Source: Burkholderia sp. GAS332 (GTDB lineage: Bacteria > Pseudomonadota > Gammaproteobacteria > Burkholderiales > Burkholderiaceae). From it: a stretch of 64,000 nt of DNA. How positions within the stretch are numbered: position 1 is the stretch's first letter; every line of letters starts with the position of its first letter. Shown piece by piece: positions 29,871 through 62,302 of this stretch. The notes under the pieces are model-generated. The model saw only the letters and a program-made list of their open reading frames with translations, was not told where the DNA came from and did not search any database. The translations under genes were made by a program, and so were the position numbers. The stretch is from the NCBI GenBank assembly GCA_900142905.1, contig FSRV01000001.1, positions 4,836,001 to 4,900,000 on the forward strand, read 5' to 3'.

Positions 29871-31271
29871 ATGTCCCTGTTTCGCAAGAAGAGCGTCGAG
29901 CACATGATCGCCGCGAGCGCCCAGAACGCCGGGCTGAAGAAAGCGCTTGGCGCGCTCGATCTGACTTTCCTCGGCGTCGGCGCCATTATCGGCACCGGCA
30001 TTTTCGTGCTCACCGGCACGGGCGCGGTTCAGGCCGGCCCGGCGCTGATGGTCTCGTTCCTGATCGCGGCGGTTGCCTGTGGGTTCGCCGCGCTCGCCTA
30101 TGCCGAGTTTGCGTCGACGATTCCGGTCGCGGGCTCCATCTATACGTATTCGTACGCGACGCTTGGCGAACTGGCCGCGTGGATCATCGGCTGGGACTTG
30201 ATGCTCGAGTATGGGTTGGCCACTTCAGCCGTGTCGGTCGGCTGGTCGGGCTATCTGCAATCGCTGTTGTCGGGTTTCGGCGTGAGCTTGCCGGTTGCGC
30301 TGTCGGCGGCGCCTGGCGCCTTGCCGGGGCACGAAACGTGGTTCAACCTGCCCGCTTTCCTTGTGATGATGGCGATTACGGCACTGTTGTCGCTTGGCGT
30401 GCGTGAATCCGCGCGGATCAACAACATCATGGTGGCGATCAAGGTGATCGTGGTGCTGCTGGTGATTGGCGTGGGCGTTTTCCACGTGACGCCGGCGAAC
30501 TGGCATCCGTTCATGCCGAACGGCTGGAACGGCGTGTTCGGCGCGGCGGCGGTGATGTTCTTCGCGTTCATCGGGTTCGATTCGGTGTCTTCCGCTGCGG
30601 AAGAAGTGAAGGATCCGAAGCGTGATCTGCCGATTGGGATCATTGCGTCGCTGGGCGTGTGCGCGGTGCTGTACGTTGCTGTGGCGGCTGTGGTCACCGG
30701 TATCGTGCCGTCGGCGCAGTTCGCGAATATCTCGCACCCGGTGTCGTATGCGTTGCAGGTAGCGGGACAGAAGTGGGTTGCGGGCTTTATCGACCTTGGC
30801 GCTGTGCTGGGCATGCTGACGGTGATTCTGGTGATGGCTTATGGCCAGACGCGCGTGATTTTTGCGATGTCGCGGGATGGGTTGTTGCCGGCGAAGCTTT
30901 CGAAGGTGCATCCGAAGTTTGCTACGCCGTTTTTTACGACGTGGCTTGTGGGGATTTTCTTCGGGTTGATTGGCGCGCTGGTGCCGTTGAATGTGCTGGC
31001 TGAGCTGATCAATATTGGCACGTTGGCCGCGTTTTCGATGGTGTCGATTGCGGTTCTGGTTTTGCGGAAGACGCATCCGGACTTGCCGCGGGCGTTTCGG
31101 TGTCCTGGTGTGCCGGTGGTGCCGGTGTTGGCTGTCGCCTCGTGTTTGTTTTTGATGGCTAATCTTCAGGCGGTGACCTGGGTGGCGTTTGTGGTTTGGT
31201 TACTGATTGGGATGGTCATTTATTTTGGGTATTCGCGGCGGCATTCCAAATTGGCTCAAATGAAAATTTGA
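29871..31271 (+). CDS. Amino acid permease (APC family, cationic amino acid transporter-like)
   Basis: 466 residues from the ATG at 29871. The family start KALGALDLTFLGVGAIIGTGIFVLTGTGAV is seen, then about 12 helices with FFAFIGFDSVSSAAEEVKDPKRDLP, which is typical of YfnA/CAT-type amino acid/polyamine/organocation carriers. The coding composition shifts along the gene. The first half is C-rich at third positions, whereas from about 30.6 kb to the stop the coding strand becomes strongly G/T-rich (Leu as TTG, Gly as GGG or GGT). It ends at repeat island A. Confidence 0.9.
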   Translation: MSLFRKKSVEHMIAASAQNAGLKKALGALDLTFLGVGAIIGTGIFVLTGTGAVQAGPALMVSFLIAAVACGFAALAYAEFASTIPVAGSIYTYSYATLGELAAWIIGWDLMLEYGLATSAVSVGWSGYLQSLLSGFGVSLPVALSAAPGALPGHETWFNLPAFLVMMAITALLSLGVRESARINNIMVAIKVIVVLLVIGVGVFHVTPANWHPFMPNGWNGVFGAAAVMFFAFIGFDSVSSAAEEVKDPKRDLPIGIIASLGVCAVLYVAVAAVVTGIVPSAQFANISHPVSYALQVAGQKWVAGFIDLGAVLGMLTVILVMAYGQTRVIFAMSRDGLLPAKLSKVHPKFATPFFTTWLVGIFFGLIGALVPLNVLAELINIGTLAAFSMVSIAVLVLRKTHPDLPRAFRCPGVPVVPVLAVASCLFLMANLQAVTWVAFVVWLLIGMVIYFGYSRRHSKLAQMKI

Positions 31272-32140
31272 GGGTTTTTGCCTGCGCGGCGCTTGTACTT
31301 TTGTGCGCCTGCGGCGTTGGATCTTGCTTGATTTTTTTGCCTGCGCGGCGCTTTTTGGTTGTGGCCTTACGGCGTTGGCCTTTCCTTGATTTCTTGTCGG
31401 TCTATTAGCGTTGCCCCTGTGCGGGGCGGCACCTACTTTTCTTTGCCTGCTGCAAAGAAAAGTAGGCAAAAGAAAGCAGCTCGAACCCCCTGCTAAGCGG
31501 GTCCCCCGCACAGCTACGGTAGTGGTGCATCTGGAATCTGTGCTCTCGCACATTCGGCCCTGGTGACAAAGCCGTCATACTTCCGGCGGCGCTGCGCGCG
31601 CCGAACGGTACTTCATAAAACCGCCTGCTGCGGTTTTGTTCTCTCATTTTGACCGGCACCACGGCCGCGTGTGGACCTCACCGTCTAATTGCTTGGGCGC
31701 CTCGCCGAGGCGAAGCCGACGGCCTCCACCGCGCTAAACGAAGCCCCCGGTTTCCCATGCAGACCCGTCCGCGACGCACGCAGTGCGGAGTGGGAGCTGA
31801 TGAGTCCTTTGTCACTGACGCTGAAGGTGCGAGGGCACGGATTCCAGATGCACCACTACCGTGGCTGCGCGGGGGACCCGCTTAGCAGGGGCTTCTAGCC
31901 GCTTTCTTTGCTTATCTTTCTTTGCGGCGGCAAAGAAAGTAAGTGCCGCCCCGCACAGGGGCAACGCTAATAAACCACTAACAAAGCAAGGAAAGGCCAA
32001 CGCCGCAGGCGCACAGACCAACAAGCGCCGCGAAGGCAAACAAACCAGGCAAAACCCACCGCCGTAGGCAAACAACCAAAACCAAGCGCCGCAGGCACAC
32101 AACCCAATAGCGCGCCCAAGCAATTTGTGCTTTACTTTTC
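31272..32140. repeat. Composite repeat island A
   Basis: A non-coding island made of two arms in opposite orientation. Arm A1 is about 31378-31612 and arm A2 about 31707-32016; both carry the core GGGTCCCCCGCACAG and TGGTGCATCTGGAAT. Degenerate units of about 60 bases (TTTGCCTGCGCGGCGCTT) lie on the outer sides. Within the arms are hairpins such as CTTTTCTTTGC/GCAAAGAAAAG and GCCCC/GGGGC. A1 is near-identical to the reverse complement of 40691-40925, and A2 to that of 40196-40504. Short open frames in it are not considered genes. Confidence 0.88.
31615..31640. terminator. Hairpin in the centre of island A
   Basis: AAAACCGC and GCGGTTTT pair around CTGCT and are followed by GTT on the plus strand. 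It is terminator-like on both strands and lies between the arms. Confidence 0.5.
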
Positions 32141-32264
32141 GGCAGACCCATAAAAAAGATCCACACAAGCAGCGAACCCGCAGGACCCTCATCGGACCCC
32201 ACGAACAGGTAGCTGAAAGCAGGAAAAACAAAGGTCCGGTTTCACCCCATAAGGAGACAACTTC

Positions 32265-32783
32265 ATGGCGATCAGCATCAGTCTGACGGTGAACGGCGCG
32301 CCCATCAGCGCCTCAATCGACCCTAACACCCTGCTTGTTCAGTTCCTTCGCGATCAGCTCCGCCTCACCGGCACGCACGTCGGCTGCGATACCGCCCAGT
32401 GCGGCGCATGCACCGTCCATCTGAACGGCCGCGCGATCAAGTCCTGCAACATCCTCGCAGTCCAGGCCGAAGGCGCAAACATCACCACCATCGAAGGGAT
32501 CGCCCAAAACGGCACCCTCCACCCGATGCAAGCCGCCTTCAAACACTGTCACGGCCTGCAGTGCGGTTTCTGTACGCCCGGCATGGTGATGAGCGCGATC
32601 TCGCTCGTCGAGCGTCAGCCCAACCTCACCGGCGACGACGTGCGCGCCCAGCTCGACGGCAATCTGTGCCGCTGTACGGGATATCACAACATCGTCAAAG
32701 CAGTCCTCGAAGGCGCCGAAGGCATGAAATCCTCCGGCACGGCCCAAGCCAATGCGCCGGCCACCGCCCAAGCCACCGCCTGA
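32265..32783 (+). CDS. Molybdenum hydroxylase small subunit, 2 x [2Fe-2S] (CoxS-like)
   Basis: 172 residues, start preceded by AAGGAGACAAC. The plant-type cluster Cys are 41, 46, 49 and 61 ([16 protein letters not shown]). The second cluster Cys are 100, 103, 135 and 137 (QCGFCTPGM and LCRCTGY). The subunit carries electrons from the molybdenum site to FAD in xanthine oxidase/CO dehydrogenase-type enzymes. It is the first gene of the cluster; large and FAD subunits follow. Its 5' part has normal codon use although it adjoins island A. Confidence 0.95.
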
Positions 32784-32793
32784 GGAGACGACG

Positions 32794-35175
32794 ATGAACG
32801 CACCCGACACCCACCTCATCGGCGCCTCCGTCGAACGTAAGGAAGACTATCGGTTCCTCACGGGCAACGGTCAGTACACCGACGACATCGTCCTGCCGCA
32901 GCAAACCTACGCGGTATTCCTGCGCTCGCCGCACGCGCACGCAAAAATCAACAGCATCGATATCGCCGCGGCCAAACAGTCGCCCGGCGTCGTCGCGATC
33001 TTCACCGGCGCAGACATGGCCGCGGAAAACGTCGGCGGACTGCCGTGCGGCTGGCTGATCCACAGCACCGACGGCAAGCCCATGAACGAGCCGCCCCATC
33101 CGATCATCGCGCACACGAAAGCGCGCCACGTCGGCGATCAGGTCGCACTGGTGATCGCCGATTCGATCAAGGCCGCGAAAGACGCCGCCGAGCTGATCGA
33201 GGTCGATTACGACGTGCTGCCGGCCGTGGTCGACACCGCGCACGCGGCCGATCCGGGCCAGGCCGCCGTTCACGACGAAGTGCCGGACAACGTCTGCTAC
33301 AACTGGGGCCATGGCGACAAAGCCGCGACCGACGCCGCCTTCGCCAAAGCCGCGCACGTCACCACGCTCGACATCGTCAATAACCGGCTGATCCCGAATG
33401 CGATCGAGCCACGCGCAGTCAACGCGAGCTATTCGACGCAGGACGACAGCTACACGCTCTACGTCGCCAACCAGAATCCGCATGTAGAACGCTTGCTGAT
33501 GGCCGCGTTCGTGCTGTCGCTGCCGGAATCGAAACTGCGCGTCATTGCGCCGGACGTCGGCGGCGGCTTCGGATCGAAGATTTTCCTGTATGCCGAAGAC
33601 GTCGCGCTGACGTGGGCATCGAAGAAAATTCGCCGTCCGATCAAATGGACCGCCGAGCGTTCGGAAGCGTTCGTCTCCGACGCGCACGGCCGCGATCACG
33701 TCACCAAAGCCGAACTGGCGATGGACGCCGACGGCAAGTTCCTCGCGATGCGCGTTCATACGATCGCCAACATGGGTGCGTATCTGTCGACCTTCGCGTC
33801 GAGCGTGCCGACCATCCTGTATGCGACGCTGCTCGCCGGCCAGTACGCAACGCCCGCCATCTACGCCGAGGTGAAAGCGGTCTTCACCAACACCGTCCCG
33901 GTCGACGCCTATCGCGGCGCAGGCCGTCCGGAAGCGACGTATGTCGTCGAGCGTCTGGTTGAAACCGCCGCGCGCGAGATGAAACTCGATCCGGCGGAAA
34001 TCCGTCGCCGCAATTTCATCCGCACGTTTCCGTATGCAACGCCAGTCGGCCTCACCTACGATACCGGCGACTACGACACCACCCTGAACCGCGCGCTCGA
34101 ACTCGCGGACGTGAAGGGTTTCGCCGCGCGCAGGCAGGAGTCAGAAAAGAACGGTAAGCTGCGCGGCCTCGGTTACTCGTGCTACATCGAAGCCTGCGGC
34201 CTCGCGCCGTCAAACATCGCCGGCGCACTCGGTGCACGCGCCGGGCTCTTCGAAGTCGGCCAGATTCGCGTGCATCCGACGGGTTCCGTCACCGTGTTCA
34301 CCGGCTCGCACAGTCACGGCCAGGGGCATGAGACAACCTTCGCACAAGTGGTCGCGGACCGGCTCGGGATTGCGCTGGAAAGCGTCGAGATCGTTCACGG
34401 CGACACCGGCCGCATTCCGTTCGGCATGGGCACGTATGGCTCGCGCTCGATCGCGGTCGGCGGTTCGGCGATCATGAAAGCGCTCGACAAGATCGAAACC
34501 AAGGCGAAGAAAATCGCCGCGCATCTGCTTGAAGCCGCGGCGGAAGACATCGAGTTCAAGGACGGCATGTTCCGCGTCGCAGGCACGGATCGCACCAAGG
34601 CATTCGCCGACATCTCGCTTGCTGCGTATGTGCCGCACAACTATCCGCTCGACGTGCTCGAACCGGGTCTCGAAGAATGCGCGTTCTACGACCCGAGTAA
34701 CTTCACGTATCCGGCAGGTTCGTACGTCTGCGAAATCGAGGTCGATCCGGAAACGGGCGTCAGCCGTATCCAGCAGTTCACCGCGGTCGACGATTTCGGC
34801 AACGTGATCAATCCGATGATTGTCGAAGGCCAGGTGCATGGCGGGCTCGGTCAGGGTATCGGCCAGGCGATGCTGGAGCGCTGCGTGTACGACAACGAAA
34901 GCGGCCAGTTGCTATCCGGCTCCTACATGGACTACGCGATGCCGCATGCGTCCGATCTGCCGAACTTCACCGTCGAAACCGTGAAGGGCACGCCTTGCAC
35001 GCACAATCCGCTCGGTGTGAAAGGCTGCGGCGAGGCGGGCGCGATTGGCTCGCCACCGGCGGTGATCAACGCGATCCTCGACGCGCTCGCGCCGCTCGGC
35101 GTGACCGACCTGCAAATGCCGGCGACGCCGCATCGCGTGTGGTCCGCGATCCACGCTGCCAAGCAACCCCACTGA
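32794..35175 (+). CDS. Molybdenum hydroxylase large subunit, form II CoxL type
   Basis: 793 residues from the ATG at 32794, 10 bases after the small-subunit stop. The active-site loop is AYRGAGR (372-378), as in form II CoxL enzymes. True aerobic CO dehydrogenase (form I) has AYxCSFR there, so CO oxidation is unlikely. The base-catalyst Glu747 lies in GCGEAGAIG, and VGGGFGSK supplies the molybdopterin contact. Relatives oxidise aldehydes or N-heterocycles; the substrate cannot be told from sequence. The gene order small-large-FAD differs from the classic coxMSL. Confidence 0.93.
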
Positions 35176-35197
35176 GATCCTGAGCGGAGCATTCGAC

Positions 35198-35995
35198 ATG
35201 TATTCATTCGAGTATCAACGCGCGACGGATCCGAAAGCGGCCGCCGCAGCCGTTACCGCCGACAGCAACGCGAAGTTTCTCGCCGGTGGGCAAAGCCTGT
35301 TGCCGACCATGCGTCTGCGTCTCGCGCAGCCCTCGCAATTGATCGACGTCACGAGGATTCCGGCGCTTAAATCGATCACGGTCGATGCCGGCAAGGTGAC
35401 CGTCGGCGCCGCGGTCTGTCACGCGGACGTCGCCGATCATGCCGACGTTCGGCGCGTGTTGCCGGCTCTCGCGGACCTCGCCGGGCACATCGGCGATCGC
35501 CAGGTGCGTGCGCTCGGCACCATTGGCGGTTCCCTCGCGAACAACGATCCGGCCGCCTGCTATCCGGCGGCGGCGATGGCATTGGATGCGACCATCGTCA
35601 CCGATCGGCGACGAATCTCGTCGAGCGATTTCTTCGTCGGCATGTATGAGACCGCATTGGCGCCCGACGAGTTGATCGTGGCCGTCGAGTTTCCGGTACC
35701 CGAACGCGCGGCCTACGAGAAATTCCGCAATCCGGCTTCGCATTTTGCGCTGGTCGGCGTGTTCGTCGCGAAGTTCGCGAGCGGCGTTCGGGTCGCGGTG
35801 ACGGGCGCGGCGGCTTCGGTATTTCGACTGCCGGAACTGGAAAGCGCGCTATCGGCGAATTTCACGCCCGAGGCCGCGCGAGCGGTGACCGTATCCGATG
35901 CCGACCTGAACACCGATATGCACGCGAGCGCCGAATATCGCGCGCATCTGATTCCGGTGCTGGCCGCGCGTGCGGTGACGAAGGCGAACGGTTAG
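35198..35995 (+). CDS. Molybdenum hydroxylase FAD subunit (CoxM-like)
   Basis: 265 residues. FAD-contact motifs are AGGQSLLPTMRLRLA (near residue 30) and TIGGSLANNDPAACYPAAAMAL (near 110, only part quoted of the fold). The C-terminal CO-dehydrogenase flavoprotein domain follows. It accepts electrons from the iron-sulfur subunit and passes them to the respiratory chain or another acceptor. It lies 22 bases after the large-subunit gene and completes the catalytic heterotrimer. Confidence 0.93.
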   Translation: MYSFEYQRATDPKAAAAAVTADSNAKFLAGGQSLLPTMRLRLAQPSQLIDVTRIPALKSITVDAGKVTVGAAVCHADVADHADVRRVLPALADLAGHIGDRQVRALGTIGGSLANNDPAACYPAAAMALDATIVTDRRRISSSDFFVGMYETALAPDELIVAVEFPVPERAAYEKFRNPASHFALVGVFVAKFASGVRVAVTGAAASVFRLPELESALSANFTPEAARAVTVSDADLNTDMHASAEYRAHLIPVLAARAVTKANG

Positions 35996-36078
35996 CAATC
36001 CTTGTAGTTGGCGGCTGACGTCGCGCGCCTCGGCATGGCGCGTCAGCCTCGTTCCCGCCCTACGCTGTCCGTCACCGT

Positions 36079-36210
36079 TGGGACTGGGACTGGGACTGGG
36101 GCTGGGGCTGGGACTGGGACTGGGGCTGGGGCTGGGGCTGGGGCTGGGGCTGCGGCTGCGGCTGCGGCTGCGGCTGCGGCTGCGGCTGCGGCTGCGGCTG
36201 CGGCTGCGGT
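36079..36210 (+). repeat. G-rich hexanucleotide arrays between FAD subunit and CoxD genes
   Basis: About ten units of GGGACT/GGGGCT are followed by about eleven of GCGGCT. They fill nearly half of the 293-base gap 35996-36288. The plus strand has many GGG/GGGG runs at regular spacing and could form G-quadruplexes. No gene is supported here; the low-complexity frame through it runs out of frame into the next gene. Confidence 0.9.
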
Positions 36211-36288
36211 CATGATCTTCTTACCTGTCGCGCCGCGGCCGCGCCGCCCGGCGCCTCACCCGTTTCATCGTGCGGATTCAGGAACACC

Positions 36289-37176
36289 ATGCAGCCTGCT
36301 TCAATCGACGACACCCTTACGCAACTCGCCGCCCAAAAATACTTCGCCAGCCGCGAACTCGCGACCGCGTTGTATCTCGCCCTGCGCATGGAGCGGCCGT
36401 TGTTTGTCGAAGGCGAGCCGGGTGTCGGCAAGACCGAGCTCGCCAAAGCCGCGGCGGGGATGCTCGGCACCTCGATGCTGCGGCTGCAATGCTACGAAGG
36501 ACTCGACACGGCCAGCGCGCTTTACGAATGGGACTACCCGCGCCAGATCATGGCGCTGCGTCTGGCTGAAGCCGCCGGCGAGCGGCCCGGCAACGACACG
36601 CTCTATCGCAGCGAATTCCTGCTGAAGCGTCCGCTACTGCAAGCGCTGATGCCCGACGAAAATCATCCGGGTGCACAGCGCGTGCTGCTGATCGACGAGA
36701 TCGACCGCGCCGACGAACCGTTCGAAGCCTTCCTGCTCGAGCTGCTTTCAGACTTCCAGGTATCGATTCCCGAGTACGGCACGGTTCGCGCGGCGCAGCC
36801 GCCGCTGGTTGTAATGACGTCGAACCGGACGCGCGAAGTCCACGACGCGTTGAAACGCCGTTGCCTGTATCAATGGATCGGCTATCCCGAGCGCGATCGT
36901 GAACTGGAGATCGTCGCCGCGCGTGCGCCGCAGACATCGGCTGAACTGCAACGGCGCGCGGTCGATTTCGTGCATCGCCTGCGCGGCATGGATCTGTTCA
37001 AGGCGCCCGGCATCGCCGAAACGATCGACTGGTGCCGCGCGTTGGAAGCGCTATCCGTGACGGAGCTCGATCCGCAATCGGTGCAGAACACCCTGGGTGT
37101 GCTGCTCAAGTATCAGGACGATCTGGCGCGCGTCGATGCCGCGCAGATCGCGCAATGTCTCGCGGTGCGGGAGTAA
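36289..37176 (+). CDS. MoxR-type AAA+ ATPase, CoxD-like
   Basis: 295 residues. Walker A is GEPGVGKT (42-49), Walker B LLIDEIDRAD, and the sensor region VVMTSNRTREVHDALKRRC. CoxD-type chaperones act with CoxE to mature the copper/molybdenum or sulfurated molybdenum centre of the large subunit. It is the first gene of the accessory block coxD-E-G-F, which follows the catalytic subunits after the G-rich repeat. Confidence 0.93.
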   Translation: MQPASIDDTLTQLAAQKYFASRELATALYLALRMERPLFVEGEPGVGKTELAKAAAGMLGTSMLRLQCYEGLDTASALYEWDYPRQIMALRLAEAAGERPGNDTLYRSEFLLKRPLLQALMPDENHPGAQRVLLIDEIDRADEPFEAFLLELLSDFQVSIPEYGTVRAAQPPLVVMTSNRTREVHDALKRRCLYQWIGYPERDRELEIVAARAPQTSAELQRRAVDFVHRLRGMDLFKAPGIAETIDWCRALEALSVTELDPQSVQNTLGVLLKYQDDLARVDAAQIAQCLAVRE

Positions 37177-37181
37177 CGGCG

Positions 37182-38513
37182 ATGACACTGGCAACGGACG
37201 GAGACCACGATGCCTCGGCTGGCAGCGGAGCATCCGCAGGCGAGGCCCGCGCGCGGCCGATGAATGCCGCAATCGACACGTCAGCCGCACCGCTCGATAC
37301 GCCCATCTTGGCCCGCAACGTCGTGCACTTTGTGCGTGTGCTGCGCGGGGCGGGCTTGCCGATGTCGCCGGCACAAGCCGTCGATGCGCTCGCCGCGCTG
37401 CACTGGATCGACCTCGGCCGCCGCGACGACGTGCGCGCCGCGCTCGCCACGCTATTAGTCTGCGCGCCGGACGAACGCGACCTCTTCAACGCCGCCTTCG
37501 ATCTGTTCTGGCGCGACCCGGATTGGGAAGGCAAGCTACGCGCGCTGCTGTTGCCGAAAGTCCGCGATGGTCTGCCGCCGCCCAAACGCAACAACCGTCT
37601 CGCTGACGCGCTTGCCGTACGCACGCAGCCTTCGCCGCACCGCAAAGCGCCACAAGAAACTGAACAACACGAACTGCACGCGCACGTCACCTTCAGTGCT
37701 GAAGAGCGGTTGCGTCATCGCGATTTCGACACGCTTTCCGCTGATGAATGGCGCACGTTGCGGCATCTGATCCGCGGCCAGCGTCTACCGCTTGCCACCG
37801 AACCGACGCGCCGCCTGAAGGCCGCCTCGCACGGCACGCATGCTGATTTGCGCGCCAGCGCGCGGCACGCGGTGCGCGCGGGCGGCGACTGGACGGTGTG
37901 GAAGTATCGCGCGGCAGTCGAACGCAAACCACCGCTGGTATTGCTGCTCGATATTTCCGGCTCGATGAGCAACTATTCGCGCGCCGTGCTGTACTTCTGC
38001 CATGCGCTTCTGCAATCGCGCGAGCGCCTGCAGGTGTTCCTGTTCGGCACGCGCCTGACCAACGCGACGCGCGCGCTGCGCGAGCGCGATCCCGACGTGG
38101 CAATCGCGACGCTCACTGATCAGGTGGTCGACTGGTCGGGTGGCACACGCATCGGCGCGGCGCTCGCCGAATTCAACCGACGCTGGGCACGCCGAGTGCT
38201 GACTGGCCGGGCCACGGTGCTGCTCGTGACCGACGGCCTGGATCACGAAGCGATCGACGTGCTCGACACCGAAATGGCCCGCCTGCGCCGCTTCGCCCAC
38301 CGTATCGTGTGGCTCAACCCGCTGCTGCGTTTCAGCGGTTTTTCACCGAAAGCGCGCGGCGTGCAGGCGATCCTGCCGTATGTCGACGCGCATCGTCCGG
38401 CACACAATCTAGACAGTCTGGCAGCGTTCGGCCACGATCTCGCGCAACTCACGCGCGCACCTCGTCTCACCGTATCCGCCACGACAACCGCGGGAGCAAC
38501 ATCATGGAATTGA
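37182..38513 (+). CDS. CoxE-like VWA domain protein
   Basis: 443 residues from the ATG five bases after the CoxD stop. The C-terminal half is a von Willebrand A domain with metal-site residues Asp257, Ser259 and Ser261 in LLLDISGSMSNYS, and DGLDHEAIDVLDTEM further on. The N-terminal half is helical and Arg/Ala-rich. CoxE partners the MoxR ATPase in maturation of molybdenum hydroxylases. The last 10 bases overlap coxG, so translation is likely coupled. Confidence 0.93.
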   Translation: MTLATDGDHDASAGSGASAGEARARPMNAAIDTSAAPLDTPILARNVVHFVRVLRGAGLPMSPAQAVDALAALHWIDLGRRDDVRAALATLLVCAPDERDLFNAAFDLFWRDPDWEGKLRALLLPKVRDGLPPPKRNNRLADALAVRTQPSPHRKAPQETEQHELHAHVTFSAEERLRHRDFDTLSADEWRTLRHLIRGQRLPLATEPTRRLKAASHGTHADLRASARHAVRAGGDWTVWKYRAAVERKPPLVLLLDISGSMSNYSRAVLYFCHALLQSRERLQVFLFGTRLTNATRALRERDPDVAIATLTDQVVDWSGGTRIGAALAEFNRRWARRVLTGRATVLLVTDGLDHEAIDVLDTEMARLRRFAHRIVWLNPLLRFSGFSPKARGVQAILPYVDAHRPAHNLDSLAAFGHDLAQLTRAPRLTVSATTTAGATSWN

Positions 38514-39100
38514 GTGAAACCCATACGCTGCCGGTGTCTCAGCAGCGCGCCTGGGACGCGCTGAACGATACCGAAATCCTGCGCGCGTGCATTCCCGGCT
38601 GCGAAAGCATCGACCCGGACGGCGAAAATGCGTACGCGGTGGTGCTGAGCGCGTCGGTCGGTCCGGTGAAGGCGCGCTTCAAAGGGCGTATGCTGCTGAC
38701 CGACATCGAGGCGCCGAACACCTACACCATCGTTTTCGAAGGTCAGGGTGGTGCGGCGGGCTTCGGCAAGGGCACTACGCACGTCACGCTCGAACCCGAG
38801 GGCGACGCCGCGACGAAGCTCACGTACACGGCGACGGCACAGGTCGGCGGCAAGCTCGCCCAGATCGGTTCGCGGCTGGTCGACGGCGCGGCGCGTAAAC
38901 TCGCGGGCGAATTTTTCAAGCGCTTCGGCGCGCAGGTCGGCGGCGACGCTGAGGGCGAAACGCCCCCGGATCGCAGCGAAACTGCAGCCGCCGACGCGCC
39001 GGTGCAGAATACGGAATCGAATGAGGCCACGGACACGGAGTCCGACGGCGACGGAACGAAGAGGAAGAAATCATGGACAGCGTGGATCTCGAGGTCCTGA
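38504..39100 (+). CDS. CoxG-like SRPBCC protein
   Basis: 198 residues from the ATG at 38504 inside the end of coxE. An SRPBCC/START-type fold is suggested by LPVSQQRAWDALNDTEILRACIPGC and the later YTATAQVGGKLAQIGSRLV. A Glu/Asp/Thr-rich tail of about 50 residues follows. CoxG proteins anchor CO-dehydrogenase-type enzymes at the membrane. The tail overlaps the start of the xdhC-like gene by 28 bases. Confidence 0.9.
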   Translation: MELSETHTLPVSQQRAWDALNDTEILRACIPGCESIDPDGENAYAVVLSASVGPVKARFKGRMLLTDIEAPNTYTIVFEGQGGAAGFGKGTTHVTLEPEGDAATKLTYTATAQVGGKLAQIGSRLVDGAARKLAGEFFKRFGAQVGGDAEGETPPDRSETAAADAPVQNTESNEATDTESDGDGTKRKKSWTAWISRS

Positions 39101-40095
39101 AGTCCAGCGCACGCTGGCTTGACGAGGGGCATCGCGCGCTACTGGTGACGGTGGTGAAGACGTGGGGCTCGTCGCCGCGTCCCGAGGGCGCGATGCTCGC
39201 GGTGCGCGACGATGGACTCGTGGTGGGATCGGTATCGGGTGGCTGCATCGAAGACGACCTGATCGACCGCGTGCGGCAAAAGGGTATTGAGCAGACGCGC
39301 CCGGAGGCGGTGAAGTACGGCATTACGGCTGAAGAAGCGCATCGCTTCGGCCTGCCTTGCGGCGGCACGATCCAACTCGTGCTGGAGCCTTTAACGCCGC
39401 AAAGCGGCGTTGGCGAACTGTGTCATGCGGTAGAGGACGGCCGTCTGATGGCACGCGAAGTCGACATGGTGACGGGCGCGGTGCGGCTCGATGCGGCGCA
39501 GGCGACAGACGGCGTGCATTTCGATGGCGAGCGTCTGCTGACGATTCATGGTCCGCGTTACCGGATGCTGGTGATCGGTGCGGGGCAGTTGTCGCGCTAT
39601 TTGTGCAACATTGCGGTTGGGCTCGATTATCAGGTCACGGTATGCGATCCGCGCGAGGAGTACACCGAGGAGTGGAGCATTCCCGGCACGAAGATTGTGC
39701 GGACGATGCCGGACGATACGGTGATCGAGATGAAGCTCGACGAACGGTGTGCGGTGATTGCGTTGACGCATGATCCCAAGCTGGATGATCTCGCGTTGAT
39801 GGAGGCGTTGAAGACGCCGGCTTTTTATGTGGGTGCTTTGGGGTCGAGAAGGAATAATCAGGCGCGGCGCGAGCGGTTGAAGGAGTTCGATCTGAACGAT
39901 ACTGAGTTGGCCCGGTTGCATGGGCCGGTTGGGATTTATATTGGGAGTCGGACGCCGCCTGAAATTGCGGTTTCGATTCTTGCCGAGGTGACGGCGGCTA
40001 AGAATGGGGTTTCGTTGCCGACTTTGTTACAGGTTGAAGGCGCTAAGGCCGCGCGGGAGATTGCGGCGAGTGGGGGTGCTGCTTGTAGTGTCTAG
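39073..40095 (+). CDS. XdhC/CoxF family molybdenum-cofactor maturation protein
   Basis: 340 residues. The N-terminal XdhC domain has TWGSSPRPEGAMLAV and VGSVSGGCIEDDL. The C-terminal Rossmann part has MLVIGAGQLSRYL and FYVGALGSRRNNQARRERL. XdhC binds molybdenum cofactor and loads its sulfurated form into the hydroxylase. This is the last gene of the cluster. Its final 350 bases shift to G/T-rich codons (TTG, GGG, GTT) unlike its 5' half, and it ends at repeat island B. Confidence 0.92.
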   Translation: MDSVDLEVLKSSARWLDEGHRALLVTVVKTWGSSPRPEGAMLAVRDDGLVVGSVSGGCIEDDLIDRVRQKGIEQTRPEAVKYGITAEEAHRFGLPCGGTIQLVLEPLTPQSGVGELCHAVEDGRLMAREVDMVTGAVRLDAAQATDGVHFDGERLLTIHGPRYRMLVIGAGQLSRYLCNIAVGLDYQVTVCDPREEYTEEWSIPGTKIVRTMPDDTVIEMKLDERCAVIALTHDPKLDDLALMEALKTPAFYVGALGSRRNNQARRERLKEFDLNDTELARLHGPVGIYIGSRTPPEIAVSILAEVTAAKNGVSLPTLLQVEGAKAAREIAASGGAACSV

Positions 40096-41005
40096 GCGCT
40101 TTTTTTGCCTGCTCGGCGGTTTTGTCTGTATGCATGCGGCGTTGGGCTTTGGCTGATTTGTTTGCCTGCGCGGCGCTTGTTTCTGTGTGCCTGCGGCGGT
40201 GGCCTTTCCTTGATTTCTTGGTGGTCTATTAGCGTTGCCCCTGTGCGGGGCGGCACTTACTTTCTTTGCCGCCGCAAAGAAAGATAAGCAAAGAAAGCGG
40301 CTAGAAGCCCCTGCTAAGCGGGTCCCCCGCACAGTCGCGGTAGTGGTGCATCTGGAATCCGTGCCCTCGCACCTTCAGCCGTAGTGACAAAGCGCTCATC
40401 AGCTCCCACTCCGCACTACGTGCGTCGCGGATGGGTCTGCCAGGGAAACCAAGGGCTTCGTTTGGGCGCGGTGGGAGCCATCGGCTTCGCCTCGGCGAAG
40501 TACCCAAAGATCGCTGTTTCGGGAAGTGCCGCCTAGCGCGTCGAGCGACTGACAAGTCGCGACAGCGCTTGCCGGTTTGAATTCGCACTTCGAATGAAGC
40601 GCCGGCGCATAGCAGGAACGTTGGAGATGCAACGGTGAGCCACGTCGTCGAGTGAGGCTCGCGCGCGAAACGCACAGTTGGTTCTGTGAAATACCCTTCG
40701 GCGCGCGCAGCGCCGCCGGAAGTATGACGGCTTTGTCACCAGGGCCGAATGTGCGAGGGCACAGATTCCAGATGCACCACTACCGTGGCTGTGCGGGGGA
40801 CCCGCTTAGCAGGGGCTTCGAGCTGCTTTCTTTTGCCTACTTTTCTTTGCAGCAGGCAAAGAAAAGTAGGTGCCGCCCCGCACAGGGGCAACGCTAATAG
40901 ACCGACAAGAAATCAAGGAAAGGCCAACGCCATAGGCGCACAGACAAAAGCGCCGCGCAGGCAAACAAACCAGGCAAAATCCAACGCCGCAGGCAAAAAG
41001 ACCAC
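40096..41005. repeat. Composite repeat island B, inverted copy of island A
   Basis: Arm B1 (about 40196-40504) and arm B2 (about 40691-40925), read as reverse complement, reproduce arms A2 and A1 of island A with few changes. The outer TTTGCCTGCGCGGCGCTT-type units of about 57 bases are at 40105-40200 on the left and in complement at 40920-41000 on the right. The centre (40505-40690) differs from that of island A. No gene is supported; short frames ending in MHHYRGCAGDPLSRGF recur in the arms. Confidence 0.88.
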
Positions 41006-41743
41006 TTACATTAACCCACAAACCACCGCGGCAACCACCGATCCACCAACCAACACAACACCGACAACACGCCGCTTATTCAACTCGGTCCACAACAGGA
41101 CGCCAGTCAAAGAAAGCAAAATCATCCCACCAGCAATCGTATCGATCAACAAAACCCACCCAACACTCAACCCCACCCCACGGTGCAGATTATTCATCGT
41201 AGTAAGAAACGAGTTCTGCGTACGCTTCACCGCAACAAACCCATTCCCCACCCAATACTCCGCCTGCACATTCTGAGTAGGCCCAAAAATCCCGACCTGC
41301 CAGAACTCCGGCTGCATCGTGCTGCGATCCCCCCAAGCCACCGCATGCGCCGGCTCGCGCTTCACCCGCCCCGGCTTGCCGTCGATCTTCAACTCACCCT
41401 TGAGCCATTTCGCCATATCCATCGGCGACTTCAGCTTCCCCTCCGGCACGGAAATCTGCATCTCCTCGACCTGCGGCTCGCCAGACGACACCTTCAACGG
41501 ACCACCCCGATGGTTCAGCAAAAAACCCGTCGCGCCGAACAACAGCCCAAGCACCGCGCCCCACAGCCCAACCCAGCCGTGCACCTTGCGCAACCACTTG
41601 ATGAAATTCGCCCGCCGCGAACGCCGGCGCCGCGCCGCCTGCTCGGCATCGTCCATCAAATGATGGCCACGCTCCGGCGTATGGGCGGTGTACTGCGTGC
41701 CGCCAGCAGCAGGCTTCATATCGATCGAATCAGGCGCGTTCAC
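41006..41743 (-). CDS. PepSY-associated transmembrane protein
   Basis: 245 residues from a GTG at 41743 that has GGAG at good distance; an ATG eight codons later is an alternative. An Arg-rich cytoplasmic N-terminus leads to helix 1 (VHGWVGLWGAVLGLLFGATGFLLNH), a periplasmic PepSY-like segment, then helices near WVLLIDTIAGGMILLSLTGVLLW and at the C-terminus. Such proteins often sit with iron-siderophore uptake genes, perhaps in periplasmic reduction. A Fur-like box lies upstream. The 3' third is G/T-rich on the coding strand and abuts island B. Confidence 0.82.
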   Translation of the reverse strand: MNAPDSIDMKPAAGGTQYTAHTPERGHHLMDDAEQAARRRRSRRANFIKWLRKVHGWVGLWGAVLGLLFGATGFLLNHRGGPLKVSSGEPQVEEMQISVPEGKLKSPMDMAKWLKGELKIDGKPGRVKREPAHAVAWGDRSTMQPEFWQVGIFGPTQNVQAEYWVGNGFVAVKRTQNSFLTTMNNLHRGVGLSVGWVLLIDTIAGGMILLSLTGVLLWTELNKRRVVGVVLVGGSVVAAVVCGLM

Positions 41744-41940
41744 TTCAAAGCTCCAGGCGCAGCAAGTTAAGCCATCGCCGGCGTGCAGCGACAAAGCGCA
41801 CGCTCACACCAGCGGTAAAAGAGGTAGCGAAAGGAAGAACCGGACAACCCGGCTTGCGGTCCAGGTCGTCCGGCTGAAAGGCTGGCTGGCAGTCACAGAG
41901 GAGGAGAAATGTGACAAAAAGCTGGCGATGCCTTTCAATT

Positions 41941-41959
41941 GAGAATGGCTATCATTACA
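41941..41959. promoter_or_regulatory. Fur-like box
   Basis: GAGAATGGCTATCATTACA matches about 14 of 19 positions of the Fur consensus GATAATGATAATCATTATC. It lies in the divergent gap, about 200 bases from the PepSY-TM start and 115 bases from the DUF3857 start. Confidence 0.5.
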
Positions 41960-42073
41960 TAATTGAGGCATTTGCTCAATCGCAATGCGCGGCGCCCGCT
42001 TGACATCCAGGCGGCGCAAAGGGACTCTAGCTGGCGATCCCGTCAACGTTGCCGTTCCGGATACCTGCCTGCC

Positions 42074-60754: not shown

Positions 60755-62101
60755 ATGAGCACCATGACCCCTGCCGAGATCGTCTCGGAACTCGACAAAC
60801 ACATCATCGGCCAAGGCCGCGCGAAAAAAGCGGTTGCCGTGGCGCTGCGCAACCGCTGGCGCCGTCAGCAGGTTGAAGACCCGCTGCGTCAGGAAATCAC
60901 GCCGAAGAACATTTTGATGATCGGACCGACCGGCGTCGGTAAAACCGAAATCGCGCGGCGTCTGGCGAAACTGGCCGACGCACCGTTCATCAAGATCGAA
61001 GCCACCAAATTCACCGAAGTCGGCTACGTCGGCCGCGACGTCGACAGCATCGTGCGCGATCTGATGGAGATCTCAATCAAGCAGACGCGCGAAACGGAAA
61101 TGCGCAAAGTGCGGACCAAGGCCGAAGATCAGGCCGAAGACCGCATCCTCGACATTCTGTTGCCGAGCGCCCGGCCGGTGGGTTTCGGCGCGAGCTCGAG
61201 CGCCGTCGACACGGCGGACGAAGGTAGCACCACGCGCCAGACCTTCCGCAAGCGTCTGCGCGAAGGCCTGCTCGACGACAAGGAAATCGAACTCGACGTC
61301 GAACAGCCGCAAGTGGGCATGGACATCATGGGGCCGCCGGGCATGGAAGACATGACCGAGCAGATCCGTTCGATGTTCGCGAACATCGGCGGCGGCAAGA
61401 AAACGCGCCGCAAGCTGAAGGTGAAGGAAGCGCTCAAGGTCCTCACCGACGAAGAAGCCGGCAAGATGCTCAACGACGAAGAGGTGAAAGCCAAGGCTGT
61501 GCAGAACGTCGAGCAGAACGGCATCGTGTTTCTCGACGAAATCGACAAGATCGCGTCGCGCAACGAAGCGGGCGGTGGCGAAGTGTCGCGTCAGGGCGTG
61601 CAGCGCGATCTGCTGCCGCTCGTCGAAGGCACCACGATCAACACCAAGTACGGCATGGTGAAGACCGACCACATTCTGTTCATCGCGAGCGGCGCGTTTC
61701 ATCTGGCCAAGCCGAGCGACCTGATTCCCGAACTGCAAGGCCGCTTCCCGATTCGGGTCGAACTGGATTCGCTGTCGGTGGGCGATTTCGAATCGATCCT
61801 GGTGTCGACCGACGCGAGCCTCGTCAAGCAATACCAGGCACTGCTGGCTACGGAAGACGTGCACCTGGAATTCGCCGACGACGGCATTCGCCGTATGGCG
61901 GAAATCGCGTTCTCGGTCAACGAGAAGACCGAAAACATCGGCGCACGCCGCCTGTACACGGTGATCGAAAAACTGCTCGAAGACGTTTCGTTCGCGGCCG
62001 GCAATCACTCGGGCAGCACGGTGCAGATCGACGCGGCGTATGTCGATCGCGCGCTGAACGAAGTGGCGGAAGACGAGGATCTGTCGCGCTACGTGCTGTG
62101 A
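60755..62101 (+). CDS. hslU: ATP-dependent protease HslVU, ATPase subunit
   Basis: 448 residues. Walker A is GPTGVGKT (57-64), Walker [12 protein letters not shown], and the I domain lies between about 110 and 240. The sensor/arginine region is [14 protein letters not shown]. The C-terminal tail DLSRYVL, which docks into HslV, is intact. HslU unfolds substrates and feeds them to HslV. The TGA stop merges directly into a hexanucleotide array, so the gene end is at risk of slippage. Confidence 0.97.
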
Positions 62102-62168
62102 TGTCGATGTCGATGTCGATGTCGATGTCGATGTCGATGTCGATGTCGATGTCGATGTCGATGTCGAC
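62101..62168 (+). repeat. (ATGTCG)n hexanucleotide array after the hslU stop
   Basis: Eleven perfect ATGTCG units (62101-62166) begin within the TGA stop (62099-62101) of hslU and end in ATGTCGACGATG. They lie between the stop and the terminator, in the 3' untranslated region. Confidence 0.97.
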
Positions 62169-62232
62169 GATGATGCCGCTGCCGCGTTAAAGTCGTGCGC
62201 CTCGCGCGCGGCCTTCATGCGTGACGCGTAAG

Positions 62233-62266
62233 AAAAAAGGCTGTCTTGTGAAAGACAGCCTTTTTC
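62233..62266. terminator. Bidirectional terminator between hslU and regA-like gene
   Basis: AAAAAAGGCTGTCTT pairs with AAGACAGCCTTTTT around a 4-base loop. It serves hslVU on the plus strand and the two-component genes on the minus strand. Confidence 0.92.
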
Positions 62267-62302
62267 GCTTTCCGGCCCGCAAGTGCGGGCAGGCCTCGGC
62301 GC

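What the first reader, a model, noticed from the sequence alone, without database searches (positions are those of the whole stretch)
31272..41005. Molybdenum hydroxylase locus bracketed by two inverted copies of a composite repeat island
Island A (31.27-32.14 kb) and island B (40.1-41.0 kb) are each built of two arms in opposite orientation. Read in reverse complement, B gives the arms of A in the same order with few substitutions over about 235 and 300 bases, while the central spacers differ. The whole CoxSLM/DEGF-type block, 8 kb with no transposase, lies between them. Inverted pairs would let recombination flip the block. Arm pairs in direct orientation would let it be deleted or circularised. 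The modular arms with distinct spacers suggest an undescribed non-autonomous repeat family.
Basis: seen in the sequence. Interest (0 to 1): 0.75.

Follow-up and report, generated by a model that had tools for sequence, protein, structure and literature searches.

The report
Palindromic repeat islands that skew neighbours
The two repeats around this operon belong to a family of about 65 large palindromic DNA islands in this bacterium, and each repeat arm is flanked on its outer side by about a kilobase of strongly strand-biased DNA inside ordinary genes, as if the repeats leave a directional mutation footprint on their neighbours.

Summary
The repeat pair is real, but A and B are two of about 65 clusters of one genus-restricted, non-coding palindromic family, so they are not specific to the molybdenum hydroxylase locus. 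Where empty sites could be compared, islands lie inside short intergenic hairpins. Twenty interrupted arms carry five insertion-sequence classes, each at its own site.

The larger finding is outside the islands. The strand pointing at an arm's outer end is G/T-rich for about 1 kb, mainly at third codon positions, beside genes of either orientation and in both replichores. Single arms do this on the outer side only, in two genomes. A blind scan of 464 kb found exactly its 7 islands. In three genes, 90 orthologous loci, skew averages 0.62 with an arm (32) and 0.17 without (58). Divergence is raised near islands and arms evolve in concert.

Best reading: each arm starts one-sided DNA processing that exposes one strand, refilled with biased errors. 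The footprint is well supported; mechanism and enzyme are inferred or unknown.

The parts
31272..32105 (.). Island A: inverted pair of arms, type 1 left and type 2 right, directly after the stop codon of the upstream permease gene
   Evidence: right border approximate
31275..31403 (+). A, left arm: outer units of about 58 bp
   Evidence: repeat families D2, D8, module hits
31404..31429 (+). A, left arm: outer-box hairpin GCCCC-TGTGC-GGGGC
   Evidence: stem variants
31430..31478 (+). A, left arm: long hairpin
   Evidence: (D9); stem variants
31519..31537 (+). A, left arm: core GTAGTGGTGCATCTGGAAT
31560..31627 (+). A, left arm: type 1 inner end
31736..31818 (-). A, right arm: type 2 inner end (approximate)
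   Evidence: (I1)
31841..31859 (-). A, right arm: core
31946..31971 (-). A, right arm: outer-box hairpin
40096..41005 (.). Island B: inverted pair of arms, type 2 left and type 1 right, between two facing stop codons
40228..40253 (+). B, left arm: outer-box hairpin
40340..40358 (+). B, left arm: core, followed by a type 2 inner end
40675..40742 (-). B, right arm: type 1 inner end
   Evidence: (I2)
40765..40783 (-). B, right arm: core
40873..40898 (-). B, right arm: outer-box hairpin
40860..40956 (+). Match to Rfam RF02421 (Bp1_684 sRNA) in B's right arm, read outward; the other three arms match below the gathering score
   Evidence: 47.8 bits against 44; others 42.7, 39.6, 35.1
30271..31271 (+). 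Footprint left of A, in the permease gene 29871-31271: + strand G/T-rich, third positions of the last 200 codons 83% G or T
   Evidence: extent is the scale of the average decay, not a measured border
32140..33140 (-). Footprint right of A, across the start of the 2Fe-2S gene that faces away: + strand A/C-rich (1-kb bin 32001: -0.240)
   Evidence: extent as above
39095..40095 (+). Footprint left of B, in the XdhC gene 39073-40095: third positions 81% G or T
   Evidence: extent as above
41006..42005 (-). Footprint right of B, in the PepSY gene 41006-41743 (- strand) and beyond: third positions 83% G or T on the strand entering B
   Evidence: extent as above

Best explanation
The islands are a genus-restricted family of non-coding, nested palindromic repeats. 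The working unit is the single arm (outer units, outer-box hairpin, long hairpin, core, sharp inner end); most islands are two arms in inverted orientation round a variable spacer. SHOWN: each arm has on its outer side about 1 kb in which the strand running 5' to 3' into the arm is G/T-rich, mostly at synonymous sites, whatever the direction of the gene or of the chromosomal fork; the skew goes with presence of the arm at the same gene in different species; 4-fold sites differ more there between two species that both carry the island; arms are homogenised within each genome. INFERRED: an arm is a polar start point for DNA processing. A strand-specific nick or end in the arm or at its inner border lets the strand that runs outward be resected or displaced for some hundreds of bases, exposing the strand that runs into the arm; damage to that strand and error-prone refilling leave a G/T bias that fades with distance. 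The same events would let arms be copied from one another. The enzyme is not identified.
For: Polar skew at 65 clusters: left .231.166.093.041.026 and right -.254, -.187, -.108, -.063, -.032 in 300-bp bins; fitted decay length 548 bp. Third positions in genes facing a paired island: C .40 far to .11 near, T .13 to .35. Single arms: outer side .611.529.464.214, inner side .053.111.169.103 in genes that also face the arm; repeated in G096, outer .268.187.076 and inner .016.026.043 over 17 single-arm clusters. Equal on both sides in both halves of C1 (10 pairs .235/-.224; 24 pairs .235/-.257). Blind scan: 7 of 7 peaks above .18 are the 7 islands, reversed-polarity control 0. Skew goes with the arm at three genes, 32 of 90 loci with and 58 without, also where the gene faces away. 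Divergence at 4-fold sites .268 within 600 bp against about .20 beyond 900 bp, G/T differences .095 against .018 per site. Concerted evolution of arms. Ordinary hairpins have no comparable skew (44 examined, at most -.050).
Against: No nick, break or single-stranded DNA has been observed and no enzyme is known. The changes are not a plain deamination pattern: where arm-free orthologues conserve C, occupied ones have G .39-.41, T .17-.21, C .39; where they conserve G, T .16-.17 (9 ambiguous rows of 60 were dropped there). The raised divergence is in genes facing the island; in genes facing away it is seen only in the first 300 bp (.251, 227 sites) and not at 300-600 bp (.194 against .188 far). 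No loci empty in both species were available as a divergence control. Skew is weaker in genes facing away from pairs (.385.370.284) than facing them (.677.606.371). Exceptions: the left flanks of L023 (-.04) and L019 (.04). Seven arm-free loci have values of .36-.46.
Confidence: 0.45

Rival explanations
1. Selection rather than mutation: the flank is kept G/T-rich on the strand entering the arm because this helps the arm work, for example by keeping the flank free of structure so that the giant hairpin can form, or by offering Chi-like recombination or loading signals.
For: The bias is mostly at synonymous sites and includes G gain as well as T gain; Chi-like signals are G/T-rich and polar (recalled).
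Against: Divergence is raised near islands rather than lowered. It would need selection on hundreds of synonymous sites at each of about 65 dispersed repeats. The collapsed island at L087 keeps a skew of .72.
Confidence: 0.2
2. The skew is older than the island or travels with it: islands insert at existing strand switches, or gene ends with island and skew are exchanged between species by homologous recombination.
For: Presence of arm and skew are linked across species, which association alone does not order in time; gene-end exchange between species is possible.
Against: Arm-free orthologues of the same genes average .28.14 and .08, and the 464-kb scan found no strong switch without an island. 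Carry-over is not excluded for single loci; 5' and 3' gene trees were not made.
Confidence: 0.12
3. RNA route: a transcript ending in the arm is reverse transcribed from the arm's inner end outward, and the error-rich cDNA is recombined into the locus.
For: Would give one-sidedness, decay with length, a sharp inner end and copying between arms.
Against: G117 has 19 + 14 outer-motif copies and strong skew at two genes (L130 .72, L230 .70) but no RVT_1 match (a draft of about 130 contigs, 99% complete). Genes facing away would need antisense transcripts.
Confidence: 0.08
4. Ordinary replication or transcription asymmetry: arms stall forks, or the gene transcribed toward the arm forms R-loops.
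For: The sign is that of a leading strand or of a coding strand, and genes facing the island show the stronger skew.
Against: No dependence on replichore; genes facing away are skewed too.62/.54/.22 in the occupied oxidoreductase against .08/.16/.08 unoccupied; inner sides of single arms, also facing genes, are hardly skewed.
Confidence: 0.06

Closest known systems
REP / BIME / REPIN sequences with RAYT transposases (PMC3116915, passages seen; PMC2817692, search listing and start of abstract only)
   Same: Intergenic, palindromic, many copies per genome, single units and inverted pairs, no coding content; works as a dispersed population of repeats.
   Different: Arms of about 300 bp and islands of about 900 bp instead of short REPs; no partner RAYT found; one-sided strand-biased flanks of about 1 kb, which none of the passages I saw describe.
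REP elements as insertion-sequence targets (PMC1525189, abstract seen)
   Same: Hairpins of a dispersed repeat serve as specific insertion sites; here five classes at five fixed sites.
   Different: The target family is another one; here one repeat is shared by several transposase families.
MITEs and other non-autonomous transposable elements
   Same: Dispersed, non-coding, inverted terminal similarity.
   Different: No target-site duplication recognised by eye; the island lies inside a pre-existing hairpin; single arms occur; no parental transposon found.
Rfam RF02421 Bp1_684 sRNA (PMC3521395, passages seen)
   Same: Covers the outer box and outer unit of the arm, read outward; reported as detected by RT-PCR in B. 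pseudomallei.
   Different: That report treats it as an sRNA gene; the passages seen do not mention repeats or islands.
Directed or break-associated mutagenesis (diversity-generating retroelements; mutagenic break repair in E. coli; both recalled, the latter seen only in the listing)
   Same: Mutation concentrated within about a kilobase of a fixed element or break.
   Different: Here one-sided, set by the orientation of a dispersed non-coding arm, with changes at both C and G and no adenine-directed pattern.

Membership tests
REPIN/RAYT | Short palindromic units occurring singly and as inverted pairs in intergenic DNA | tested here: inconclusive
   Single arms and inverted pairs between genes, yes (19 and 46 of 65 clusters); but the unit is about 300 bp with several hairpins, not a short REP
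REPIN/RAYT | A RAYT (Y1_Tnp) in the genome | tested here: not met
   Host: one weak match (28.7 bits, cut-off 23), a match of like strength being present in all 34 other same-genus genomes examined, islands or not, and one sub-threshold fragment
MITE / transposon | Target-site duplication and clean empty site | tested here: inconclusive
   Empty and occupied cca and queF sites compared by eye: the island is inside the old hairpin, no duplication recognised; no systematic test
MITE / transposon | Transposase or parental autonomous element with the same ends | not tested
   Transposases seen are insertions into arms at fixed inner sites; no search for a parental element was made
Rfam RF02421 (Bp1_684) | Score at or above the gathering score (44) | tested here: inconclusive
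   One of the four arms in the window passes (47.8), three fall short (42.7, 39.6, 35.1); expression not tested
Retroelement-driven mutagenesis | Reverse transcriptase in every genome with islands and skew | tested here: not met
   G117: islands and skew, no RVT_1 match; draft genome
Replication terminus or fork barrier | Skew depends on replication direction | tested here: not met
   Both halves of C1 alike

The most novel reading that the evidence does not exclude
A dispersed non-coding repeat that works as a polar local mutator: each arm directs one-sided, strand-specific processing of its outer flank, rewriting the synonymous composition of the nearest kilobase of neighbouring genes at dozens of places per genome, while the arms copy one another. 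This would be a new class of genomic element, and its footprints a record of where DNA strands are repeatedly opened.
Probability: 0.5. Interest if true: 0.92.

Novelty: categorically new. Interest (0 to 1): 0.85.

Why it matters
Strand asymmetry in bacteria is normally explained by replication and transcription. Here a small repeat overrides both over about a kilobase at some 65 places in one genome, with a built-in control (single arms mark one side) and natural experiments (occupied and empty orthologous sites). If the mutational reading is right, it makes strand-specific mutagenesis testable at mapped sites, and it means that codon usage and substitution rates of many genes in these species are set by a neighbour rather than by the gene. 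The novelty label rests on the footprint, not on the existence of intergenic repeats. Ten searches of an open-access library listed nothing that describes it; subscription journals and preprints are not covered.

Tried and rejected
RAYT as partner: no candidate. Reverse transcriptase as required partner: disfavoured by G117. Fork barrier: both sides equal in both halves of C1, where background GC skew is mostly positive before and mostly negative after about 2.5 Mb; on C2 I split at 2.3 Mb, which is not where its background skew changes, so C2 is no test. Hairpins in general: 44 hairpins outside islands show no comparable flanks (largest mean -.050). Transcription toward gene ends: genes facing away are skewed and inner sides of single arms are hardly skewed. 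Homogenisation of the two arms of one locus: not seen in the arm body (.905 within.904 to other loci, 30 pairs), slight in the outer 58 bp (.809 against .780). Plain cytosine deamination: does not fit. Literature: nothing listed on these islands or on polar skew beside repeats.

Limits. One search scored 40 of 148 candidates. One search listed 100 of 114 core hits. I fetched the loci seen; one search lists outer-motif copies at C1:2300553 and C1:2977412 that I did not fetch. The 65 clusters include fragments (outer box only at L058 and L061), and L014 probably counts one island twice, because an insert of about 3 kb separates its parts. In G096, loci for all core hits except C3:5227523 and C3:5335111 were fetched. 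Genes were called by my own codon-usage script, not by a standard caller; the three orthologue tests do not depend on it. The 30 loci per gene are the best 30 of 97 genomes, so close species are over-represented, and the Mann-Whitney values (7e-5, 5e-6, 7e-6) ignore relatedness. The arm modules used were broadened after (so that L111, L119 and L134 count as occupied); scars such as L119 and L203, with outer units only, count as occupied there, L087 does not. In one search occupied and ambiguous rows were assigned by hand. One search failed from a script error and was rerun.
Full report
1. The observation. Islands A and B exist as described, with the matches and spacers given in the observation check. 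The seven genes between them have the domains of an ordinary CO-dehydrogenase-type molybdenum hydroxylase set.

2. A family, not a pair. In the host genome (10.4 Mb, 3 contigs) the arm core GTAGTGGTGCATCTGGAAT occurs 57 + 57 times with up to 3 mismatches (reversed-pattern control 5 + 4) and the outer box 50 + 48 times (control 0 + 0). Fetched and clustered, this gives 65 clusters: 46 inverted pairs and 19 single-arm or fragment loci. Of 109 arms, 68 have a type 1 and 41 a type 2 inner end; most pairs combine one of each. Inner ends of single arms are sharp, near a shared AAACC (read by eye). Outer ends vary: where a gene faces the island, its stop codon lies roughly 74, 135, 193 or 251 bp from the outer box, steps of about 58 bp (by eye). 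The exact outer motif is in 52 of 97 genus genomes including the host (94 + 86 copies in G114, none in 45) and in none of the other 199 genomes of the order sample.

3. Where islands sit. Pairs lie between genes arranged +- 18, ++ 12, -- 11, -+ 5. For cca and queF, species without an island have a short intergenic stretch, often with a simple hairpin; in occupied species the halves of such a hairpin form the island's borders, clearest in L110 and L120 (by eye). L119 and L087 look like collapsed islands in which only outer units are left.

4. Insertion-sequence landing pads. Twenty interrupted arms were examined. The inserts fall in five classes, each at one site: DDE_Tnp_1 (IS4-like) at the outer-box hairpin (10, in both orientations), a two-gene rve type (IS3-like) in the long hairpin (4), DEDD/IS110 in the long hairpin (3), HTH_38 + rve (IS30-like) after it (2) and another rve type (1). 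Domains are; the IS family names beyond the Pfam names are recalled.

5. The footprint. The + strand is G/T-rich left and A/C-rich right of islands, in both GC and TA skew, falling from about .24 to near background within 1.2-1.5 kb (fitted decay length 548 bp). At third codon positions of genes facing paired islands, C falls from .40 to .11 and T rises from .13 to .35. Genes facing away have the same sign but less (.385.370.284 against .677.606.371). Single arms show it on the outer side (.611.529.464.214) and hardly on the inner side (.053.111.169.103), although those inner-side genes also face the arm; outer-side genes facing away, 4-6 per bin, give .654.542.384. G096 repeats the pattern in total composition: 25 pairs .239.154.094; 17 single-arm clusters outer .268.187.076, inner .016.026.043. 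The two halves of C1 do not differ. A blind scan of 464 kb found 7 switches above .18, exactly its 7 islands, and none of reversed polarity; at .15 it was 7 against 1 and at .12 15 against 6. Twenty thousand random positions outside islands gave mean -.001, sd .081, maximum .353, against .43-.577 for the islands. Ordinary hairpins do not have it. Exceptions: the left flanks of L023 (-.04) and L019 (.04).

6. The footprint goes with the arm. For three genes, 30 orthologous loci each, third-position skew in the 100 codons nearest the island site was .66 (9 loci with an arm module within 450 bp) against .28 (21 without) for cca.59 (12) against .14 (18) for queF, and .62 (11) against .08 (19) for a GMC oxidoreductase whose start faces the island. 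The ranges do not overlap for queF and the oxidoreductase; for cca they overlap only through L087, the scar (.72). Single genomes are skewed at their occupied genes and not at their empty ones: G107 has .74 at cca (occupied).22 at queF and .06 at the oxidoreductase; G022 has .74 at queF (occupied).40 at cca and .06 at the oxidoreductase. Against this: L084, L086, L092, L094, L098 and L100 at cca and L115 at queF have .36-.46 without a recognised arm. At one locus, L058/L178, the host has only a right-hand fragment and no left skew (-.03), while the G096 locus is a pair with .21 and -.25; other loci, such as L031/L164, keep skew on a side where no second arm is recognised.

7. Tempo. Of 294 flank genes, 147 matched G096 island loci, all but 3 with an island within reach. 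At 4-fold sites the two genomes differ at .268 within 600 bp and about .20 beyond 900 bp; amino acids differ at .086 within 300 bp and .051 at 300-600 bp against about .04. Gene ends more than 1300 bp away show no rise (.197 against .206). G/T differences rise about fivefold. The rise is in genes facing islands; in genes facing away it is confined to the first 300 bp. No locus empty in both genomes was available as control.

8. Concerted evolution. Arms are .903 alike within the host.873 within G096 and .803 between them; at 30 shared loci the best match is .816, no better than a random best of two (.822), with many near-fixed species differences. Arms at conserved positions are therefore overwritten from within each genome. 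In the outer box and the long hairpin, stems change on both sides together (GCCCC/GGGGC to CCCCC/GGGGG; CTTTTCTTTGC to CTTCTCTTTGC with matching partners; lists); this was read from variants and not tested by a covariation program.

9. Mechanism. If the bias is mutational, the exposed strand is most simply the one entering the arm, since C and G on it are replaced mainly by G and T. A start point in the arm or at its inner border, with outward processing of the opposite strand, accounts for polarity, one-sidedness, decay and independence of forks and transcripts and, through copying between arms, for concerted evolution. A two-sided break does not account for single arms. The step from footprint to mechanism is inference and the activity is unknown. 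Selection, carry-over by recombination and an RNA route are ranked as rivals.

10. What is known. REP, BIME and REPIN families share palindromy and dispersal (PMC3116915, passages; PMC2817692, listing). REP elements are known insertion-sequence targets (PMC1525189, abstract). RF02421 covers the outer part of the arms read outward and was reported as an RT-PCR-detected sRNA (PMC3521395, passages). PMC2267715 on stem-loop families has no mention of Burkholderia or Ralstonia (passages). None of the text I saw describes kilobase strand-polar footprints beside repeats.

11. Verdict. The repeat pair is confirmed, its supposed link to the operon is not special, and the family carries a strong, replicated footprint on its neighbours. 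Confidence that the footprint is real and tied to arms: about 0.97. That it is caused mutationally by the arm: about 0.5-0.6. That the nick or strand-processing route is right: about 0.45.

Noticed in passing
window 36067-36210: A run of hexamers (TGGGAC, TGGGGC, then TGCGGC) between the FAD-subunit gene and the CoxD-type AAA gene, nine overlapping copies of a 48-nt reference.
   Followed up: no
L014, L013, L020, L025, L069 spacers: Spacers between the two arms of an island often hold simple tandem repeats, for example CACTGC, GAGTGC or CCATTG hexamers, and differ in length from 286 to 1580 bp core to core.
   Followed up: partly
window 62089-62267: Two overlapping Rfam matches far below gathering score (MIR4374, and ncS011 Burkholderia sRNA 11).
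   Followed up: no
G000:C1:2300553 and G000:C1:2977412: Further copies of the outer motif outside the loci fetched; perhaps remnants without a core.
   Followed up: no
G114: The genome with most outer-motif copies of the 97 examined, 94 + 86; a good place to repeat the analysis.
   Followed up: no
L084 and L086, downstream of cca: Intermediate skew (.44.46) beside a longer simple hairpin and no recognised arm: old scars, an early stage, or another arm family.
   Followed up: partly
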